Shown in pieces: positions 7,471-60,440 of a stretch of DNA of 64,000 bases. The translations under genes were made by a program, and so were the position numbers. The notes below the pieces were generated by a model. That model was not told the DNA's origin, ran no database searches, and worked only from the letters and a program-made list of their open reading frames with translations. Within the stretch, counting starts at the first letter, position 1, and every line of letters begins with the position of its first letter. Source of the stretch: Stagnimonas sp. (GTDB lineage Bacteria > Pseudomonadota > Gammaproteobacteria > Nevskiales > Nevskiaceae); contig JAUSQI010000160.1 of assembly GCA_030652575.1 (NCBI GenBank), positions 1-64,000 of the forward strand. Direction: 5' to 3'.

Positions 7471-8745
7471 TCAAGCCATAAAGATTGTTGCTGGATGTTC
7501 GAGATACTGTTTGAGTTTCTGGATGAAGCTGGCGGCATCGTAGCCATCGACGATGCGGTGATCGAAGGACGACGAGAGGTTCATCATCGTCCGAATCACC
7601 ACCTGGCCATTGCGCACCATCGGCCGCTCCACCATCTTGTTGACCCCGATGATGGCGACCTCGGGTGCATTGATGATCGGTGTGCTGACGATGCCACCCA
7701 TGGTGCCCAGGCTGGTGATGGTGATGCTGGAGCCGCTCAGTTCATCCCGCTTCGCCTTGCCGCTTTTGGCCGCTTCGGCCACGCGCTTGATCTCCGCGGC
7801 GCACTGCCAGATGTCCATGCTCTCGGCATGTTTGGCGACCGGCACCATCAAGCCCTGCGGCGTCTGTGCCGCCACACCGATATGCAGCACCTGATGACGA
7901 TGGAAGATGCCCGCCTCGTCGTCATAGGTGCCGTTGACGTTGGGAAACAGCGGCACCGCCTTGACCATCGCCCGCATCAGGAAGGGCAGCAGCGTCAGCT
8001 TGGCCTGATCGGGACGCCGGGTTTCGTTCAAATGCACCCGCAGCGCCTCCAGCTCCGTCACATCGATCTCCTCGACGTAGGCGAAGTGCGGGATGCGGCG
8101 CTTGCTGCGCTCCATGCTCTCCGCGATCTTGCGGCGCATGCCGATGATCTTGATCTGCTCGATACCGGTCGCTGGCGCGATAGGGGATGGGGTGCGGGGG
8201 ATAGGGGATGGGGTGGTGCCTTGCGGTGCGCTGCCGTGCGCATCGAGATCTTCATGACCGATACGACCACCCTTCTTGCTGCCCGCGACTTCAGCCAAGT
8301 CGATGCCAAGCTCGCGGGCGCGTTTGCGCACGCTGGGTGCCGCCAGTGGCTTCTCGCCATCGGCGCGCAGCGGGGCTACGGGTTTGGCCACCGCCGCGAC
8401 AGGTGCTGCAGCGGCCTTTGCCGTTGCGGCACTCGCATGCGATGCCGACGATGATGCAGCGGCATCAGGTGCCTGTTCGGCGGGCGCACCCGCAGCCGCA
8501 CCCACCGCGGTCTCGATCAGCAGCAGCACGGCCCCGACGGCGACCTTGTCACCGGCCGCACCGCGCAGTTCCTTCACCACACCCGCGACGGGCGAGGGGA
8601 TTTCCACGGCCGCCTTGTCGGTGAGCATGTCGACCAGCGGCTGGTCTTCTTTCACGGTATCGCCGACCGCCACGCGCCAGGTGGCGATCTCGCACTCGGC
8701 GATGCCTTCGCCGATATCCGGCAGCTTGAAAGTAAAGAGCGACAT
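7471..8745 (-). CDS. bkdB: Branched-chain 2-oxoacid dehydrogenase E2 (dihydrolipoyl acyltransferase)
   Basis: This 424-residue E2 core carries one lipoyl domain (residues 1-76, lipoylated K44 in MLTDKAAVEIP), an Ala-rich linker, a peripheral-subunit binding domain (about 145-185, PSVRKRARELGIDL), a second linker and the acyltransferase domain with HRIVDG (H396, D400). It moves acyl groups from lipoamide to CoA. The ATG at 8745 has a GGAGGAATA ribosome site inside the end of the E1beta gene, 2 bases downstream of that gene's stop. The second linker (TPSPIPRTPSPIAP) is encoded by a copy of the dispersed G-rich repeat. No lipoamide dehydrogenase (E3) gene adjoins it. Branched-chain rather than pyruvate specificity is inferred from the E1 pair. 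Confidence 0.9.
   Translation of the reverse strand: MSLFTFKLPDIGEGIAECEIATWRVAVGDTVKEDQPLVDMLTDKAAVEIPSPVAGVVKELRGAAGDKVAVGAVLLLIETAVGAAAGAPAEQAPDAAASSSASHASAATAKAAAAPVAAVAKPVAPLRADGEKPLAAPSVRKRARELGIDLAEVAGSKKGGRIGHEDLDAHGSAPQGTTPSPIPRTPSPIAPATGIEQIKIIGMRRKIAESMERSKRRIPHFAYVEEIDVTELEALRVHLNETRRPDQAKLTLLPFLMRAMVKAVPLFPNVNGTYDDEAGIFHRHQVLHIGVAAQTPQGLMVPVAKHAESMDIWQCAAEIKRVAEAAKSGKAKRDELSGSSITITSLGTMGGIVSTPIINAPEVAIIGVNKMVERPMVRNGQVVIRTMMNLSSSFDHRIVDGYDAASFIQKLKQYLEHPATIFMA
8181..8214 (+). repeat. Dispersed G-rich repeat, copy D (inside the E2 gene)
   Basis: The plus strand reads as G4-G5 runs separated by AT, TGC or ATA: taggggatggggtgcggggg, then ataggggatgggg. Similar blocks lie at 43221-43255 (opposite strand) and as a pair at 58767-58798 and 58883-58921. 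Here it is read through as a Pro-rich linker of E2. Confidence 0.75.
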
Positions 8746-8747
8746 GC

Positions 8748-9761
8748 CTATTCCTCCATTACTTTCTTGATCGCGCGCGAGACGCGATAGGGACCGGGGA
8801 AGTAATCCCACTCGTAGGCGTGCGGGTAGGGCGTGTCCCAGCCGGTGACGCGCTCGATGGGTGCTTCCAGGTGATAGAAGCAGTGCTCCTGAATCAGGCT
8901 GACCAGCTCCGCCCCGTAGCCGCAGGTCTTGGTCGCTTCGTGGACGATCACGCAGCGGCCGGTCTTTTTTACCGACGTCACCAGGCAGTCGAGATCAAGC
9001 GGCAGCAGGCTGCGCAGGTCGATCACTTCGGCATCGATGCCGCTTTCTTCGGCAGCGGCGAGGCAGACATGCACCATCGTGCCATAGCAGATCACCGTCA
9101 CCTTTTCGCCGGGCCGCACGATCTTGGCCTTGCCGAGTTCGATCTTGTAGTACTCCTCCGGCACCTCGCCGAGATCGTGCTTGGTCCAGGGCGTGAGCGG
9201 ACGGTCGTGATGGCCGTCGAACGGTCCGTTATAGATGCGCTTCGGTTCGAAGAAGATCACCGGGTCGTCGTCTTCGATGGCTGACAGCAGCAGGCCTTTG
9301 GCGTCGTAGGGGTTGCTGGGCATGATCGAGGTCAGGCCGCAGACGTGGGTGAAGATCGCTTCGGGAGATTGGCTGTGCGTCTGCCCGCCGAAGATGCCGC
9401 CGCCGACCGGCGTGCGCACGGTGAGCGGCGCAGTGAAGCCACCGGCCGAGCGATAGCGCAGGCGTGCAGCCTCCGACACCAATTGATCGAAGGCCGGGTA
9501 GATGTAGTCCGAGAACTGGATCTCGACCACAGGGCGCAGGCCATACACGCCCATGCCGACGGCGGCACCGACGATGCCGCCCTCGGAGATCGGCGCATCG
9601 AAGCAGCGGCGCTTGCCGTACTTCTTCTGCAGGCCGGCGGTGGCGCGAAACACGCCGCCGAAGTAGCCGACGTCCTCACCGAAAACGAGCACGTTCGGGT
9701 CGCGCTCCATGGCGATGTCCATCGCGGAATTGATGGCCTGAATCATGTTCATGCGGGCCAT
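8748..9761 (-). CDS. bkdA2: Branched-chain 2-oxoacid dehydrogenase E1 beta subunit
   Basis: The 337-residue protein is a transketolase-like pyrimidine-binding plus C-terminal domain subunit: NVLVFGEDVGYFGGVFRAT (residues 23-41), DAPISEGGIVGAAVGMG, and GGGIFGGQTHSQSPEAIFTH. These match BCKDH E1beta more closely than pyruvate dehydrogenase E1beta. With the alpha subunit it decarboxylates branched-chain 2-oxoacids using thiamine diphosphate and transfers the acyl group to E2. The ATG at 9761 is chosen over 9752 because AGGAAGGAG lies 8 bases upstream, overlapping the E1alpha stop. It is the middle gene of the E1alpha-E1beta-E2 operon. Confidence 0.93.
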   Translation of the reverse strand: MARMNMIQAINSAMDIAMERDPNVLVFGEDVGYFGGVFRATAGLQKKYGKRRCFDAPISEGGIVGAAVGMGVYGLRPVVEIQFSDYIYPAFDQLVSEAARLRYRSAGGFTAPLTVRTPVGGGIFGGQTHSQSPEAIFTHVCGLTSIMPSNPYDAKGLLLSAIEDDDPVIFFEPKRIYNGPFDGHHDRPLTPWTKHDLGEVPEEYYKIELGKAKIVRPGEKVTVICYGTMVHVCLAAAEESGIDAEVIDLRSLLPLDLDCLVTSVKKTGRCVIVHEATKTCGYGAELVSLIQEHCFYHLEAPIERVTGWDTPYPHAYEWDYFPGPYRVSRAIKKVMEE

Positions 9762-41470: not shown

Positions 41471-42489
41471 GTGCTGCGCTGACCACCGCGCTGCAGGCGA
41501 TCTGGTGGCGGCCAGAGCCACCGCCACGGGCCCTGCGTGCACTTGAACGGGTTTACGCAGGTGTTGCCGATGGCATCGCGCAACGCCGCAAGGCACGTGC
41601 CGTGCGACTGCCGGTGCCGGTCATGGTCATCGGCAACATCGCCATCGGCGGCACCGGCAAGACGCCGATCACCCTGGCGCTGATCGAACAGCTGCAAGCG
41701 ATGGGCGCGACACCGGGCGTGCTCTCGCGCGGCTATGGCGGCTCGGGGCCGTTCCCTCTGCTGGTGACGGCCGGCACGCTCGCCGCGCAAGCCGGCGATG
41801 AACCTGCCTTGATCGCCCAGCGCGCCGGTGTGCCGGTGTGCTGCGCGCCTTCGCGTGCCGAGGCCGGGCGCGTGCTGCTGGCCGCACACCCCGAGGTGGA
41901 TGTGCTGCTCTGCGACGACGGCTTGCAGCACTACGCCCTGGCGCGTGACGTGGAGCTTTGCGTCATCGATGGCGTGCGCGGACACGGCAACGGCCATCGC
42001 CTGCCCGCAGGCCCTTTGCGGGAGTTGCCCGCACGCACCGCCACCTGCGCGCTGGTGCTGGTCAATGGCGGCGAGGCCACGGCCTATGGCCGCAACGCGC
42101 TGCGCTTCGATCTGGTGGCAGACCATGCGGTGCTGCTGCGCAGCGCTGAACGCCGGCCGTTGTCTGCATTTGCAGGCATGACGGTCGAGGCTGTAGCAGG
42201 CATCGGTCGGCCACAGCGGTTCTTCGAGTTGCTGGCTGCAAAGGGGCTGTTGGCGCGCGCGCATCCCTTTGCCGATCACCAGGCTTTCAGCGCCGAAGAC
42301 CTCGCGTTTTCAGGCACGGCACCGATCGTGATGACCGAGAAAGATGCTGTGAAATGCCGCGCACTGAATCTGTCTACCGATCGTGCGTATTGGTACGTGC
42401 CGGTGACGGCGGTGTTCACACAAGACGCAACGATGCGTGTGCAAGAATGCCTGCGCTCCTTTCTTGCGCTGCGCCGCAGCCGCCACTGA
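41467..42489 (+). CDS. lpxK: Tetraacyldisaccharide 4'-kinase LpxK
   Basis: A 340-residue kinase that adds the 4'-phosphate to lipid A precursor at the inner membrane. The N-terminus has the amphipathic/hydrophobic region and LERVYAGVADGI, the P-loop is GNIAIGGTGKTP (about 57-68), followed by GVLSRGYGG and DVLLCDDGLQHYAL. It starts with GTG at 41467, overlapping the msbA stop by 4 bases, showing translational coupling. A phosphatase gene follows 23 bases later. Confidence 0.95.
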   Translation: MSAALTTALQAIWWRPEPPPRALRALERVYAGVADGIAQRRKARAVRLPVPVMVIGNIAIGGTGKTPITLALIEQLQAMGATPGVLSRGYGGSGPFPLLVTAGTLAAQAGDEPALIAQRAGVPVCCAPSRAEAGRVLLAAHPEVDVLLCDDGLQHYALARDVELCVIDGVRGHGNGHRLPAGPLRELPARTATCALVLVNGGEATAYGRNALRFDLVADHAVLLRSAERRPLSAFAGMTVEAVAGIGRPQRFFELLAAKGLLARAHPFADHQAFSAEDLAFSGTAPIVMTEKDAVKCRALNLSTDRAYWYVPVTAVFTQDATMRVQECLRSFLALRRSRH

Positions 42490-42512
42490 CGATTGCGTCC
42501 TTCCGCAGACCC

Positions 42513-43220
42513 ATGACCCCGACCAAGATCATCCCGCGCGCGCCGCTGTCACCGCCGGTCATTCCGCCACTGTCAGCCTGGCGACGCTTCGTGGTGTGGC
42601 TCAATTCGACCTTCATCGACCATTCGTTCTTCCGGTTTTTCTACAACCTGCGCTCGCGCGTGGGGCGTGACCTGTTCCGCTCGGCGCACCCCATGCCCTA
42701 CCAGGTGCGCGCGGCCCAGAAGGCGGGCATTCGCAGCATCATCAGCCTGCGCGGCATCGAGCCGCACCTGGGCAGCAATGTGCTGGAGTGGGAAGCCTGC
42801 CGGGAGATCGGCCTGCCCATCGTGCACCTGCCCATCGGCTCGCGCGAGGCGCCACACCGCGACGCGATCCTCGGCCTGGATCAGCTGTTCGACACGCTGC
42901 CCAAGCCGATTCTCGCGCACTGCAAATCGGGCGCGGACCGTGCGGGCCTGGCCAGCACGCTGTATCTGCTGCTGAAGGAAAACGCGCCGTACGAAGAGGC
43001 GATCAAGCAGATGGCATTCTGGCGTCACGGTCATATCAAGCAGGCCAAGACGGGCGTGCTCGACCACTTCTTCGAAACCTATCGCCAGCACCATGCCGCG
43101 CACGGCACGCCGTTCCGCGAATGGATCGAACACCACTATGACCGCAAGGCGGTCGAGAAGAGTTTCCACTCGCAGTGGTGGGCCAATCACATCGTCGATC
43201 GCATCCTGCGCCGCGAATAG
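42513..43220 (+). CDS. Dual-specificity/tyrosine phosphatase family protein
   Basis: A 235-residue phosphatase with the CX5R signature AHCKSGADRAG (catalytic C137, R143). A hydrophobic N-terminal segment (AWRRFVVWLNSTFIDHSFFRFFYN) could attach it to the membrane. GRDLFRSAHPMPYQVRAAQKAGIRSIISLRG is typical of COG2365-like predicted dual-specificity phosphatases. Lying between lpxK and trm112 it may act on an envelope phospho-substrate, such as a lipid A or lipid phosphate, but protein tyrosine phosphatase activity is equally possible. It ends directly at a G-rich repeat copy. Confidence 0.82.
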   Translation: MTPTKIIPRAPLSPPVIPPLSAWRRFVVWLNSTFIDHSFFRFFYNLRSRVGRDLFRSAHPMPYQVRAAQKAGIRSIISLRGIEPHLGSNVLEWEACREIGLPIVHLPIGSREAPHRDAILGLDQLFDTLPKPILAHCKSGADRAGLASTLYLLLKENAPYEEAIKQMAFWRHGHIKQAKTGVLDHFFETYRQHHAAHGTPFREWIEHHYDRKAVEKSFHSQWWANHIVDRILRRE

Positions 43221-43255
43221 CCCCCATCCCCCGTACCCCGACCCCCATAACCGCT
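43221..43255 (-). repeat. Dispersed G-rich repeat, copy A
   Basis: Begins at the base after the phosphatase stop. On the minus strand it reads AGCGGTTATGGGGGT, then CGGGGTACGGGGGATGGGGG. It matches copy B at 58883-58921 nearly throughout. Confidence 0.8.
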
Positions 43256-43265
43256 TCCTGAAAAA

Positions 43266-43451
43266 ATGGACAAACGCCTGCTCGATATTTTGGTCTGCCC
43301 CGTTACGCAGACCGCTCTCGTCTACAAGCCTGCCGCGCAGGAGCTATGGTGCCGCGCCTCCCGCCTCGCCTATCCCATCCGCGATGGCGTGCCGGTGATG
43401 CTGGAAGACGAGGCGCGTCCCTTGACCGACGAAGAAGCCGCGACGCTTTGA
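43266..43451 (+). CDS. Trm112/YcaR family small protein
   Basis: A 61-residue protein starting [20 protein letters not shown], with the [18 protein letters not shown] segment that defines the YcaR/Trm112-like family. In many proteobacteria it sits between lpxK and kdsB. Only two cysteines remain, as in bacterial members that have lost the zinc ribbon. Its role is unclear; the eukaryotic relative activates methyltransferases. No kdsB follows; instead a terminator and the convergent rne gene. Confidence 0.9.
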
Positions 43452-57509: not shown

Positions 57510-58754
57510 TTATTTGACCAGTGTGTTGAGATCGAAGATCGGCAGCAGGATCGCCAGCACGATGACGAGCACGATGCCGCCCATGACCACCGTCATGACC
57601 GGCTCCATCAGCTTCATCAGCACGCCGATGCGCAGCTCGACTTCCTTCTCCTGGTTGTCGGCCGAGCGCTCCAGCATTTCGCCGAGCCGACCGGACGATT
57701 CGCCGCTGGAGACCAGGTGCACGACGATCGGCGGGAACAGCTTGCTGGCTGCCAGGCTGCGGCCCAGGCCGGCACCTTCGCGCACGCGCTTGGCGGCGTC
57801 TTCGATGGCTTCGCGCATCGGCAGGTTTTCGACCACCTGCGCGCCGATGCGCATGGCTTCCAGAATCGGTACGCCGCTGCCGAAGAGAATGCCCAGCGTG
57901 CGCATGAAGCGACCGGTGTTGGCCCCGCGCACCAGCTTGCCGATCACCGGCCAGCCGAGCTGGCGCTGGTGCCAGCTGCGACGGAAACCCTCGCTGGTGC
58001 GCAGCGTGCGGCGAAACAGCCAGACTCCGGCAATGCCGCCAAAGATGATGACGGGCCAGGCTTTGCGCAGGAAGTCCGAGAGGCCGATCATGCCGCGCGT
58101 GAGCAGCGGCAGCTCGGCGTTGATGCCCTGGAACACCTCGACCACCTGCGGCACAACGTAGGTCATCATGCCCATCACAACACCTGTTGCGACCACCAGC
58201 ATGATGATCGGGTAGATCGCCGCCTGGGTGACCTTGCTGGCCATCTCCTGCGAGCGCTCGACGTAATCGGCGAGACGTTCCAGCACGTGGTCGAGCTTGC
58301 CCGCCTGCTCGCCCGCCTCGATGGTGGAGCGGAACAGGATCGGGAAGGCATTCGGGAACTGTTCGAGTGCTGAAGCCAGGCTGTCGCCCTCGGTCACCCG
58401 CGAGCGGATGCCCAGCGTGATGCGCTGCACCTTGGCACTTTCGCTCTGCTGCGAAACCACCGTGAGCGCTTCATCCAGCGGCAGGCCCGAACGAAACAAT
58501 GTGGCGAGCTGGCGCGTGAACAGTGCGAGTTCGGCGGATGAAAGAGAGCCGCCACCGCGCTTGAAAAAGCCACCGTTGGCCGCGTCGTTGCCGGAGTGCT
58601 TCGCGCTGTCGCGTTCGGCAACTTCCTTAAGCTCCGTGGTCATCAGGCCACGGTCGCGCAGCAGCTGCCGCGCCTGTCGAGCGGTTTCGGCCTCGATCAG
58701 ACCTTTTTCGTTCTTGCCCCGGGCATTGAGGGCGACGTATTCGAAGGCGGACAT
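57510..58754 (-). CDS. gspF: Type II secretion inner-membrane protein GspF
   Basis: A 414-residue polytopic platform protein: MSAFEYVALNARGKNEKGLIEAET start, two T2SSF domains (about 75-200 and 280-400) with LFRSTIEAGEQAGKLDHVLERLADY and VVHLVSSGESSGRLGEMLERSA, and three membrane helices ending LVIVLAILLPIFDLNTLV. It couples GspE to pseudopilus assembly. The gene is separated from gspE by 168 bases rich in inverted repeats, much longer than the other gaps. No gspG follows. Confidence 0.95.
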   Translation of the reverse strand: MSAFEYVALNARGKNEKGLIEAETARQARQLLRDRGLMTTELKEVAERDSAKHSGNDAANGGFFKRGGGSLSSAELALFTRQLATLFRSGLPLDEALTVVSQQSESAKVQRITLGIRSRVTEGDSLASALEQFPNAFPILFRSTIEAGEQAGKLDHVLERLADYVERSQEMASKVTQAAIYPIIMLVVATGVVMGMMTYVVPQVVEVFQGINAELPLLTRGMIGLSDFLRKAWPVIIFGGIAGVWLFRRTLRTSEGFRRSWHQRQLGWPVIGKLVRGANTGRFMRTLGILFGSGVPILEAMRIGAQVVENLPMREAIEDAAKRVREGAGLGRSLAASKLFPPIVVHLVSSGESSGRLGEMLERSADNQEKEVELRIGVLMKLMEPVMTVVMGGIVLVIVLAILLPIFDLNTLVK

Positions 58755-58766
58755 GCTTAGGTGAAG

Positions 58767-58798
58767 CGGTGCTGGGGGATGGGGGATGGGGGATGGGG
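58767..58798 (+). repeat. Dispersed G-rich repeat, copy C
   Basis: The plus strand reads AGCGGTGCTGGGGGAT and then two more GGGGGAT units and GGGG. It starts 12 bases upstream of gspF and pairs with copy B on the other strand. Confidence 0.82.
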
Positions 58799-58807
58799 CG
58801 CAGCGAG

Positions 58808-58828
58808 GTGGTCACAGGCTGTGACCAC
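58808..58828. other. Palindrome inside the gspE-gspF gap
   Basis: GTGGTCACA-GGC-TGTGACCAC is a perfect 9-bp stem with a 3-base loop, nested within the inverted G-rich repeat pair. Confidence 0.7.
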
Positions 58829-58882
58829 TTTCACTACGTCCATTTTTGCTAGTCCTTGCAATCCGTTCCCCAAAGCCGTCGT

Positions 58883-58921
58883 CCATCCCCCATCCCCCAT
58901 ACCCCAACCCCCAGCCCCGCT
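58883..58921 (-). repeat. Dispersed G-rich repeat, copy B
   Basis: On the minus strand it reads AGCGGGGCTGGGGGTTGGGG, then TATGGGGGATGGGGGATGG. It abuts the gspE stop and is inverted relative to copy C, so the pair could fold into a stem of about 30 bases around an 84-base middle. Confidence 0.82.
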
Positions 58922-58922
58922 T

Positions 58923-60422
58923 CTAGTCCTCAATCGTCACGCGCAGCACTTCTTGCAGGGTCGTCTTGCCGCTCAACACCTTGCGCCGACCACTTTGCAG
59001 GATGCCGGGGCTGGAGGTGCGGGCGTAGGTTTCCAGCTGCTGTTCGCTGGCCCCGTCGTGGATCATCTCTTCGAGCTTCTTGTCGACTTCGATCAGCTCG
59101 TGGATGCCGCTGCGGCCGGCATACCCGGTGTGGCGGCAATGGCCGCAGCCTTCGGCCTTGTAGAGCGTCAGCGGCTCGGCGGGGTCCACGCCGAGCATCT
59201 CTTTTTCGTTGCGTGTCGCGTCGTAGGGCGTCTTGCATTTGCTGCACAGGGTGCGCACCAGGCGCTGTGCCATGAGGCCCACCAGCGAGCTTGAGAGCTG
59301 GTAGGGCTCCATGCCCATGTCGCGCAGGCGGGTGATGGCGCCGACGGCCGTGTTGGTGTGCAGGGTGGAGAGCACGAGGTGACCGGTCTGGCTGGCTTGC
59401 ACCGCGATCTCGGCAGTTTCCAGATCGCGGATTTCACCGATCATCACCACGTCCGGATCCTGGCGCAGAATCGCGCGCAGACCGCGTGCGAAGGTCATCT
59501 CCACCTTGGTGTTGACCTGCGTCTGGCCGACACCTTCCATGTAGTACTCGATGGGGTCTTCCACCGTCATGATGTTGCGGCTCTTGTCGTTGAGCACGCT
59601 CAAGGCCGAATACAGCGTGGTCGATTTACCCGAGCCGGTCGGGCCGGTGACCAGCAGAATGCCGTGCGGGCGGAAGATGATCCGCTTGAGAGTCTCGATC
59701 TGGGTCGGGTCGAGGCCCAGCAGTTCGAGGTCGATGCGTTCGGATTGCTTGTCCAGAATACGCATCACCACCCGCTCGTTGCTGGTGCCGGTGGGGATGG
59801 TCGAGACACGCACGTCCACCTTGCGGCCGCCGAAGGCGCGGCTGATGCGGCCATCCTGCGGCAGGCGCTTTTCGGCGATGTCGAGCCGCGCCATGATCTT
59901 GATGCGGCTGACCAGCTTGGGCGCGAGCGTCTTGGCGGCGCTGATGACCTCGCGCAGCACGCCGTCGACGCGGAAGCGAACCACCACTTTCTGCTCGTAG
60001 GTCTCGACGTGGATATCCGAGGCGTTTTCCTTGATCGCCTCGACCAGCAGCCCGTTGATGAACTTGATGATCGGCGCGTCGTCGTCGCTTTCCAGCAGAT
60101 CCTGCGCTTCGCTCAGGGCTGCGGCGAGATCATCGACCTCGATCTGCTCGTCCTTGAGGCCCGAGGCGAGCGCGGCGGTCGCACCGGTCGCGCCCTCGTA
60201 GGTCTTCTGCAGCAGCTTGTCGAACTCTTCGATGCTGATGGTCGAGAGCTTCACCGGGCGGCGCAAAAAGCGGCGGGCTTCCGCCAGCGCCGTCACGCTT
60301 ACGCCGGGACGGGCGAATACGGTGACGTGCTCTCCATTCAACTCGCCGACGATCAGGCCGTGGCGTTTGGCAAAGGCAAAGGGCGGGCGACGCAACGCGT
60401 CGGCAGTGGCTTCAACAGACAT
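58923..60422 (-). CDS. gspE: Type II secretion ATPase GspE
   Basis: A 499-residue cytoplasmic ATPase. An N1E-like domain (1-90) precedes the catalytic region with Walker A GPTGSGKST, the Asp box RVSTIPTGTSNERVVMRIL, Walker B VVMIGEIRDLETAEIA, and the tetracysteine zinc motif CSKCKTPYD ... CGHCRHTGYAGR. It powers pseudopilus extension. The ATG at 60422 gives MSVEATADALRR; a TTG at 60428 is nearer an AGG. It starts 18 bases after gspD and is followed by the repeat-rich gap before gspF. Confidence 0.95.
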   Translation of the reverse strand: MSVEATADALRRPPFAFAKRHGLIVGELNGEHVTVFARPGVSVTALAEARRFLRRPVKLSTISIEEFDKLLQKTYEGATGATAALASGLKDEQIEVDDLAAALSEAQDLLESDDDAPIIKFINGLLVEAIKENASDIHVETYEQKVVVRFRVDGVLREVISAAKTLAPKLVSRIKIMARLDIAEKRLPQDGRISRAFGGRKVDVRVSTIPTGTSNERVVMRILDKQSERIDLELLGLDPTQIETLKRIIFRPHGILLVTGPTGSGKSTTLYSALSVLNDKSRNIMTVEDPIEYYMEGVGQTQVNTKVEMTFARGLRAILRQDPDVVMIGEIRDLETAEIAVQASQTGHLVLSTLHTNTAVGAITRLRDMGMEPYQLSSSLVGLMAQRLVRTLCSKCKTPYDATRNEKEMLGVDPAEPLTLYKAEGCGHCRHTGYAGRSGIHELIEVDKKLEEMIHDGASEQQLETYARTSSPGILQSGRRKVLSGKTTLQEVLRVTIED

Positions 60423-60440
60423 GAGCAACAGACCTGGGTT

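What the first reader, a model, noticed from the sequence alone, without database searches (positions are those of the whole stretch)
58755..58922. Nested inverted repeats between gspE and gspF
Copies C and B of the G-rich repeat face each other across about 84 bases, giving a potential stem of some 30 bases, and a perfect 9-bp palindrome (58808-58828) lies inside. The other gsp gaps are 18 and 52 bases. Such a two-headed element inside an operon resembles a REPIN or MITE-like unit and could separate gspF expression from gspCDE.
Basis: partly seen in the sequence, partly recalled or inferred. Interest (0 to 1): 0.55.

Follow-up and report, generated by a model that had tools for sequence, protein, structure and literature searches.

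The report
Facing seven-base repeats between secretion genes
Between two secretion genes of an uncultured Nevskiaceae-like bacterium sits one of about forty copies of a G-rich repeat made of seven-base units, often arranged as two arms facing each other, a kind first described in Xanthomonas whose origin and purpose are still unknown.

Summary
The 168-bp gspE-gspF gap carries two facing 36-nt arms (92% complementary, 89 nt apart) and a perfect 21-nt palindrome. Each arm is a GAAGC head and five G-tracts spaced seven bases apart. About 40 such sites lie in this genome. In the nearest relative (GspF 91% identical) the gap is 6 bp, an empty site.

By layout and placement it is a variant of the heptameric G-tract repeats, often convergent pairs, described for Xanthomonas (Rehm 2015), which mark xpsF, the gspF counterpart. 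REPIN membership fails: no palindromic core in the arms, no arms beside the one RAYT-like gene. MITE membership is unresolved.

New here: (1) arms of a pair are no more alike, and fold together no better, than arms swapped between pairs, so no pair-specific hairpin is kept; (2) a rough coding model puts 10 of 34 classable sites inside reading frames; (3) the same gap in other genera often carries period-7 DNA with other heptads, some without runs of three G.

Most likely a lineage-specific insertion, transcribed with the operon, that uncouples gspF from gspE and hinders but need not stop read-through. Gain direction, transcription and effect are inferred; how copies arise is unknown.

The parts
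58755..58922 (.). gspE-gspF intergenic gap holding the element; 6 bp in G001 / ND3_Bin_16
58763..58798 (+). arm 1: head GAAGC, then five G-tracts (the first degenerate) at 7-nt period; C-rich on the coding strand, ending 8 nt before the gspF ATG
58799..58887 (.). 89-nt spacer; its middle (58808-58870) has no other match in this genome at E up to 1, its edges match other arms' surroundings; no hit in plasmids
58808..58828 (.). perfect 21-nt palindrome inside the spacer; one place in the genome; no exact hit in viral contigs
58888..58923 (-). arm 2: head GAAGC overlapping the gspE stop codon, then five G-tracts; G-rich on the coding strand directly after gspE
58923..60428 (-). gspE (name by sequence recognition; no family search run on it)
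57510..58754 (-). gspF (name by sequence recognition); found after gspE in the relatives where the gap could be read
8183..8213 (+). single-arm copy lying in frame inside an E2 acyltransferase-like gene (7471-8811, -), coding for a TPSPIPRTPSPI stretch
43221..43246 (-). single-arm copy between two + strand ORFs (42354-43220 and 43266-43451)

Best explanation
The gap holds one copy of a dispersed heptameric G-tract repeat: two arms, each a GAAGC head plus five G-tracts at 7-nt spacing, facing each other across a spacer. It is a variant of the kind known in Xanthomonas as convergent GGGAATC repeats. SHOWN: about 40 sites in this genome; a gap of only 6-11 bp in the four congeners examined; nearly constant G positions with variable bases between; in this copy, the placement relative to genes that Rehm reports. 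INFERRED: it was gained on this lineage rather than lost in the congeners; it broke the tight gspE-gspF spacing and so probably translational coupling; it is transcribed with the operon; in mRNA the arms can form a very stable stem, and the G-rich arm alone a G-quadruplex, which slows polymerase or exonuclease and alters the amount or stability of parts of the message without being a true terminator. It is probably a tolerated insertion with a modest effect rather than a dedicated gsp regulator. How new copies arise is not known.
For: Anatomy: of 59 arms 38 have five G-runs and 17 have four. All 20 neighbouring arm pairs closer than 140 nt are convergent. Empty site in G001 = ND3_Bin_16; gaps of 6-11 bp in G001-G004. 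Of 29 G000 sites tested, 22 had both flanks in G001, and 19 of those 22 had no chain of three or more G- or C-tracts there. Of 39 sites, 34 could be classed by a rough coding model: 18 between codirectional genes, 10 inside a frame, 3 convergent, 3 divergent; Rehm 2015 reports the same shortage between divergent genes (sections 10 and 13 read). The window copy fits Rehm's placement: G-rich on the coding strand right after a stop, and on the non-coding strand right before a start. Coding-strand fold -109 kcal/mol, z -7.1. G-rich arm alone: -43.9 kcal/mol with a G-quadruplex allowed, -10.9 without. Rehm found transcripts starting or ending more often at G4-capable repeats (section 15).
Against: No expression data for this organism. 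With the whole gap folded, the hairpin wins over the G-quadruplex (same energy with and without G4 allowed). Three of the 22 comparable G001 sites do hold tracts: an eroded facing pair (L104), tracts at L086, another repeat type at L108; L102 shows an eroded single arm by eye. So some copies predate the split, and loss in G001 is possible. Rehm found 83% of repeats kept in place between two Xanthomonas species, unlike here. G conservation is partly ascertained, since sites were found with a G-tract pattern.
Confidence: 0.7

Rival explanations
1. A REPIN- or MITE-like mobile element: the two arms are terminal inverted repeats recognised by a transposase acting in trans, and doublets are the mobile unit.
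For: Two-headed layout, doublets and singlets, empty sites, dispersed copies; a RAYT-like Y1_Tnp gene of 175 aa in the genome, 28.4 bits against a cut-off of 23; REPIN spacers too are less conserved than the REPs (PMC3116915, passages seen).
Against: No palindromic core in the arms; no arms in the 1.95 kb around the RAYT-like gene; spacers of 10 nt or more share only one 11-mer (L094/L104) and three 8-mer matches; arms of a pair no more alike than arms of different pairs; at L082 the 102 nt between the arms is native coding sequence matching G001, so those arms did not arrive with that spacer as one unit; no clear target duplication by eye.
Confidence: 0.17
2. Ordinary simple-sequence repeats grown in place by polymerase slippage and kept because the G-tracts form G-quadruplexes.
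For: Seven-base tandem units; G positions far more constant than the bases between them; long perfect arrays in G002 and G035.
Against: Arm length in G000 is nearly fixed at four or five tracts (55 of 59 arms) and a common head, AGAAGC or TGAAGC, precedes 22 of 60; units within an arm differ; in G014 and G025 the same gap holds GTGAGGC or GTGATTC units, G4Hunter 0.71 and 0.14 against 2.86 for GGGGGAT.
Confidence: 0.18
3. A selected RNA hairpin (attenuator or processing site) that sets gspF output separately from gspCDE.
For: Very stable predicted stem; period-7 DNA at the same gap in 10 of 13 family genomes with gaps of 60 bp or more.
Against: Across 19 pairs own partner arms fold no better than swapped ones (mean -50.5 against -51.7; 82% of permutations at least as good); no promoter or terminator match; many relatives have almost no gap; the same elements sit at unrelated junctions and inside frames.
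Confidence: 0.08
4. Assembly artefact or chance.
For: Some contig ends stop in the repeats and share flanks (L076/L083 and L083/L101; L082/L107 by eye), so repeats did confuse the assembler.
Against: The window copy lies inside a 72-kb contig with gspE and gspF open and in the order of the relatives; shuffles exclude chance.
Confidence: 0.02

Closest known systems
Heptameric G-rich repeats of Xanthomonas and Nostoc (Rehm et al. 2015, PMC4692102; abstract, sections 10, 13, 14, 15, 16 and passages read)
   Same: Seven-base G-tract units with a preference for four units, dispersed, mostly intergenic, few between divergent genes; convergent pairs (70 in Xcc, 75 in Xac); xpsF marked as a repeat-associated gene; transcribed.
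   Different: Unit GGGGNNN rather than GGGAATC (Nostoc: GGGGA(C/T)T); a GAAGC head; 10 of 34 classable sites in frames by a rough model (Rehm 7-11% intragenic); mostly not kept in place in the nearest relative (Rehm 83% shared between two species); the authors report such repeats in Xanthomonas but not in other gammaproteobacteria.
REPINs / REP doublets with RAYT transposases (PMC3116915, passages)
   Same: Two inverted heads with a variable spacer; singlets and doublets; dispersed; predicted hairpin.
   Different: No palindromic core; no arms beside the RAYT-like gene; arms are tandem heptads; arms and spacers are not copies of a master.
MITEs, in particular Rickettsia palindromic elements (PMC10969869, passages)
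   Same: Inverted-repeat DNA found in frame inside genes.
   Different: Rickettsia elements are about 150 bp and fall into ten families; here tract spacing and part of the head are what copies share.
TAACTGA heptanucleotide repeats of Beggiatoaceae (PMC4679880, passages)
   Same: Abundant intergenic seven-base repeats.
   Different: Direct repeats mostly upstream of start codons, not G-rich, one inverted case.

Membership tests
Heptameric G-tract repeats (Rehm 2015) | tandem seven-base units with G-tracts | tested here: met
   period-7 score 20 of 21, 0 of 200 shuffles; periods 4-6 and 8-10 score 9-13; arms
Heptameric G-tract repeats (Rehm 2015) | dispersed, mostly intergenic, few between divergent genes | tested here: met
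   of 39 sites 5 at contig ends unclassed; of 34, 18 codirectional, 3 convergent, 3 divergent, 10 inside a frame; rough model
Heptameric G-tract repeats (Rehm 2015) | convergent pairs common | tested here: met
   20 pairs and 19 singles after dropping one chance chain; 20 of 20 close neighbours convergent
Heptameric G-tract repeats (Rehm 2015) | unit sequence GGGAATC (Xanthomonas form) | tested here: not met
   0 hits of GGGANTCGGGANTCGGGA with up to 1 mismatch in G000. The paper itself joins two units (GGGAATC, GGGGA(C/T)T), so I call this a variant of the kind, not the Xanthomonas repeat
Heptameric G-tract repeats (Rehm 2015) | G-quadruplex formation in vitro | not testable with these tools
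   only predicted
REPIN | each head a REP with an imperfect palindromic core | tested here: not met
   no inverted repeat of 12 nt or more within either arm of the window copy; other arms read by eye
REPIN | RAYT gene flanked by the same repeats | tested here: not met
   one Y1_Tnp match in the genome (95% complete); 0 GGGGNNNGGGG in the 1950 bp around it
REPIN | two inverted heads with a variable spacer | tested here: met
MITE | terminal inverted repeats | tested here: met
   36-nt arms, 92% complementary, in the window copy
MITE | target-site duplication and shared internal sequence | tested here: inconclusive
   no duplication evident by eye, but flanks have diverged; spacers unrelated
MITE | autonomous partner with the same ends | not tested
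   the whole genome was not available as a file
Rickettsia palindromic element | in-frame presence inside genes | tested here: met
   rough model, 10 of 34; window copy at 8183 in frame. Shared sequence with those elements was not tested

The most novel reading that the evidence does not exclude
In this bacterial family a heptad element is written de novo rather than copied: genomes differ in their main heptads, arms of about five units appear singly or facing each other around native DNA at operon junctions and in protein linkers, and the same junctions (gspE-gspF, hisA-hisF) are filled again and again with different heptads. This would need a machine, for example a templated 3'-end extension acting at breaks or nicks, that adds a short seven-base repeat.
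Probability: 0.1. Interest if true: 0.85.

Novelty: new variant of a known kind. Interest (0 to 1): 0.42.

Why it matters
The paper that described heptameric G-tract repeats left their origin and role open. Here is a pair of relatives (GspF 91% identical) in which one genome has about 40 sites and the other lacks tracts at 19 of 22 comparable ones; that makes gain, effect on the operon and mechanism testable. The lack of pair-specific complementarity argues against a selected hairpin, and same-gap units without runs of three G argue against quadruplexes as the general reason for the layout.

Tried and rejected
REPIN/RAYT: one Y1_Tnp gene, no arms beside it. Palindrome as a repeated operator or mobile motif: one place in the genome, no exact hit in viral contigs, spacer not in plasmids (phages were not searched). 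Promoter or terminator: none matched. Inverted duplication of one arm: rejected across 19 pairs (non-G columns 0.342 within against 0.357 shuffled, sd 0.030). The window pair itself is 92% complementary, yet its own partner ranks only 8th of 19 right arms by fold energy. Hot spot peculiar to gspE-gspF: weakened by the hisA-hisF control, where period-7 DNA is found in G000, G021 and G022 (0 of 500 mononucleotide shuffles each) and not in G013, G015, G018, G024 (79 or more of 500); so 3 of 24 family genomes, the other gaps being 50 bp or shorter, G017's misread by the script, and G004 of the 25 left out because its match was split. Heptads strictly one per lineage: not borne out; GTGAGGC hits occur in 7 of 18 genomes and GGGAGAC arrays in G002, G021 and G035.

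Paper searches: (the last held no paper); in these listings only Rehm 2015 described facing heptads; most subscription journals are not held.

Rows dropped: the gap survey gave 58 rows of 61 genomes (G048, G054, G059 had no usable gspF start); G023, G029 (family) and G041, G057 (outside) were not resolved by the script, and G034's gap is cut by a contig end. One chance chain in L102 was dropped from the arm counts but not from the head count. L078 gave no chain; L109 (three runs, inside a frame) is probably a chance match but is still counted. Pair L097, cut by a contig end, was left out of the pair tests. Ten of the 39 sites (L076, L101, L107, the first site in L106, L097, L109, L080, L098, L103, L096) were left out of the G001 flank test as contig ends, weak, or to save space. 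In one search the alignments for L077, L089 and L086 were misplaced by an offset error; redid them.

Full report
What is there. The gap between gspE and gspF (58755-58922, both genes on the minus strand) holds two facing arms, 58763-58798 and 58888-58923, 36 nt and 92% complementary with 89 nt between. Each arm reads GAAGC followed by five G-tracts with a period of seven bases; the first tract of the left arm is degenerate. The right arm's head overlaps the gspE stop codon and the left arm ends 8 nt before the gspF ATG. Inside the spacer is a perfect 21-nt palindrome found at one place in the genome.

Genome-wide family. GGGGATGGGGGATGGGG with up to two mismatches gives 79 partly overlapping hits (33 + 46 by strand) against one for the reversed control. 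I fetched 37 stretches around the hits. A script that chains G-runs found 40 sites, one of them a chance chain in L102, leaving 39: 20 convergent pairs and 19 singles. All 20 neighbouring pairs closer than 140 nt are convergent. A few singles at contig ends share flanks and may be duplicates. Of 59 arms 38 have five G-runs, 17 four, two three, one six and one seven; the six bases before the first tract are AGAAGC or TGAAGC in 22 of 60 arms, the chance chain included. Spacers are 3-102 nt, mostly 6-36; those of 10 nt or more share one 11-mer and three 8-mer matches.

Arms are independent modules. In 57 full-length arms the central G positions are nearly invariant while the bases between vary. 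Arms of one pair match each other at non-G columns no better than arms of different pairs (0.342 against 0.357, sd 0.030, 19 pairs), and an arm folds with its own partner no better than with swapped partners. So neither an inverted duplication nor a pair-specific RNA stem is supported; the tract pattern is what is kept. This rests partly on arms found by a G-tract pattern.

Empty sites. Its gspE-gspF gap is 6 bp; G002-G004 have 9-11 bp. Flanks of 28 other G000 sites were searched in G001 and, with the window site, compared: 22 of 29 had both flanks; in 19 of these 22 G001 has no chain of three or more tracts, and in three (L086, L104, L108) it has, an eroded facing pair at L104 and a different repeat at L108. 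At L102 an eroded single arm is visible by eye. At L082, in coding sequence, the 102 nt between the arms is native and aligns with G001, so those arms did not come in with that spacer as one unit. The exact five-tract pattern (GGG every seven bases) has no hit in G001, which is 87% complete; the 37 fetched G000 stretches hold it in 30 arms of 25 stretches (G000 itself was not).

Inside genes. A rough coding model put 10 of 34 classable sites inside an open frame. Examples, named from their sequence and not by a family search, look like hrpA, murB, ddl and nitrite reductase. In this list L099 has a weak left signal, L088's strand call may be wrong, and L109 is probably a chance match. The window copy at 8183 codes for TPSPIPRTPSPI in an E2 acyltransferase-like protein.

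Relatives. I read the gspE-gspF gap in 58 of 61 genomes, four of them unresolved. In family f1 (37 genomes) 13 gaps are 60 bp or longer, G034's being cut by a contig end; 10 of these 13 have period-7 DNA that 0 of 200 shuffles reach (G000, G007, G008, G013, G014, G020, G021, G025, G034, G035), three do not (G026, G027, G033). Inverted arms reach 0 of 200 in six of the ten; G013, G025 and G034 are weaker (11, 8 and 15 of 200) and G008 has a single array (182 of 200). G019 (57 bp) shows a similar array by eye. Four long gaps outside the family (G044, G047, G051, G052) were reached by 2 to 58 of 200 shuffles. The units differ: GGGAATC (G007, G034), GGGACTC (G020), GGGAGTC-like (G021), GGGAGAC (G035), GTGAGGC (G014), GTGATTC (G025).

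Unit types by genome. In 18 genomes searched, GTGATTC arrays occur only in G025 (5 hits); GGGANTC arrays in G007, G020, G021 and G034, with one hit each in G003, G012 and G035; GTGAGGC arrays in seven of 18, mainly G014 and G035. GGGAGAC arrays occur in G002, G021 and G035 among 22 searched. So genomes differ in their main units, but units are not private to one lineage. GTGATTC and GTGAGGC lack runs of three G, so quadruplexes cannot be the general reason for the layout. At hisA-hisF, where G000 has another pair, period-7 facing DNA occurs in G021 and G022 too (3 of 24 family genomes), so gspE-gspF is a frequent but not a unique place.

What it is. Rehm et al. 2015 (PMC4692102; sections 10, 13, 14, 15, 16 read) describe GGGAATC heptamer repeats in Xanthomonas: four units preferred, intergenic, few between divergent genes, 70 and 75 convergent pairs per genome, xpsF marked as repeat-associated, function unknown. 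The present element fits in layout and placement but not in unit sequence, head or conservation between relatives. I file it as a variant of that kind. In outline it works like a REPIN but fails two REPIN features tested here, the palindromic core and a RAYT gene flanked by the repeats.

How it most likely acts. The gap is 168 bp where congeners have 6-11 bp, so translational coupling from gspE to gspF is probably lost (inference). No promoter or intrinsic terminator is matched. The message can fold into a very stable stem (-109 kcal/mol, z -7.1); if the G-rich arm folds before the C-rich arm is made, a quadruplex is favoured (-43.9 against -10.9 kcal/mol), while in the whole gap the stem wins. 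In Xanthomonas transcripts start or end more often at G4-capable repeats. I expect a partial roadblock and altered message stability, not separate transcription units. None of this has been measured here.

Noticed in passing
window 8183-8213, gene 7471-8811 (-): A single heptad arm lies in frame in an E2 acyltransferase-like gene and codes for a proline-serine-rich stretch.
   Followed up: partly
L113 1366-1893 (G000:C143): One RAYT-like Y1_Tnp gene of 175 aa with no heptad arms in the 1.95 kb held around it.
   Followed up: partly
L076, L083, L101, L107: Contig ends fall in perfect (GGGGATG)n arms and share flanks with other contigs; C49 near 1278 (L083) looks like a join of two unrelated loci, since its two flanks map to different G001 contigs.
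   Followed up: partly
L200 (G001), orthologue of L108: Where G000 has facing GGGGNNN arms, G001 has a different facing repeat containing GGGAGAGGGGCAGGGGTGAGGG.
   Followed up: no
G035:C2:653277-653448; G035:C1:2353060-2353369; G002:C23:26726-26819: Very long heptad arrays (GTGAGGC, GGGAGAC), more than ten units, in relatives.
   Followed up: no
L060 (G026), gspE-gspF gap: A 183-bp gap with a long A/T-rich inverted repeat that is not period-7.
   Followed up: no
L094 and L090: Elements sit at conserved operon junctions that look like hisA-hisF and ptsH-ptsI (names by sequence recognition only).
   Followed up: partly
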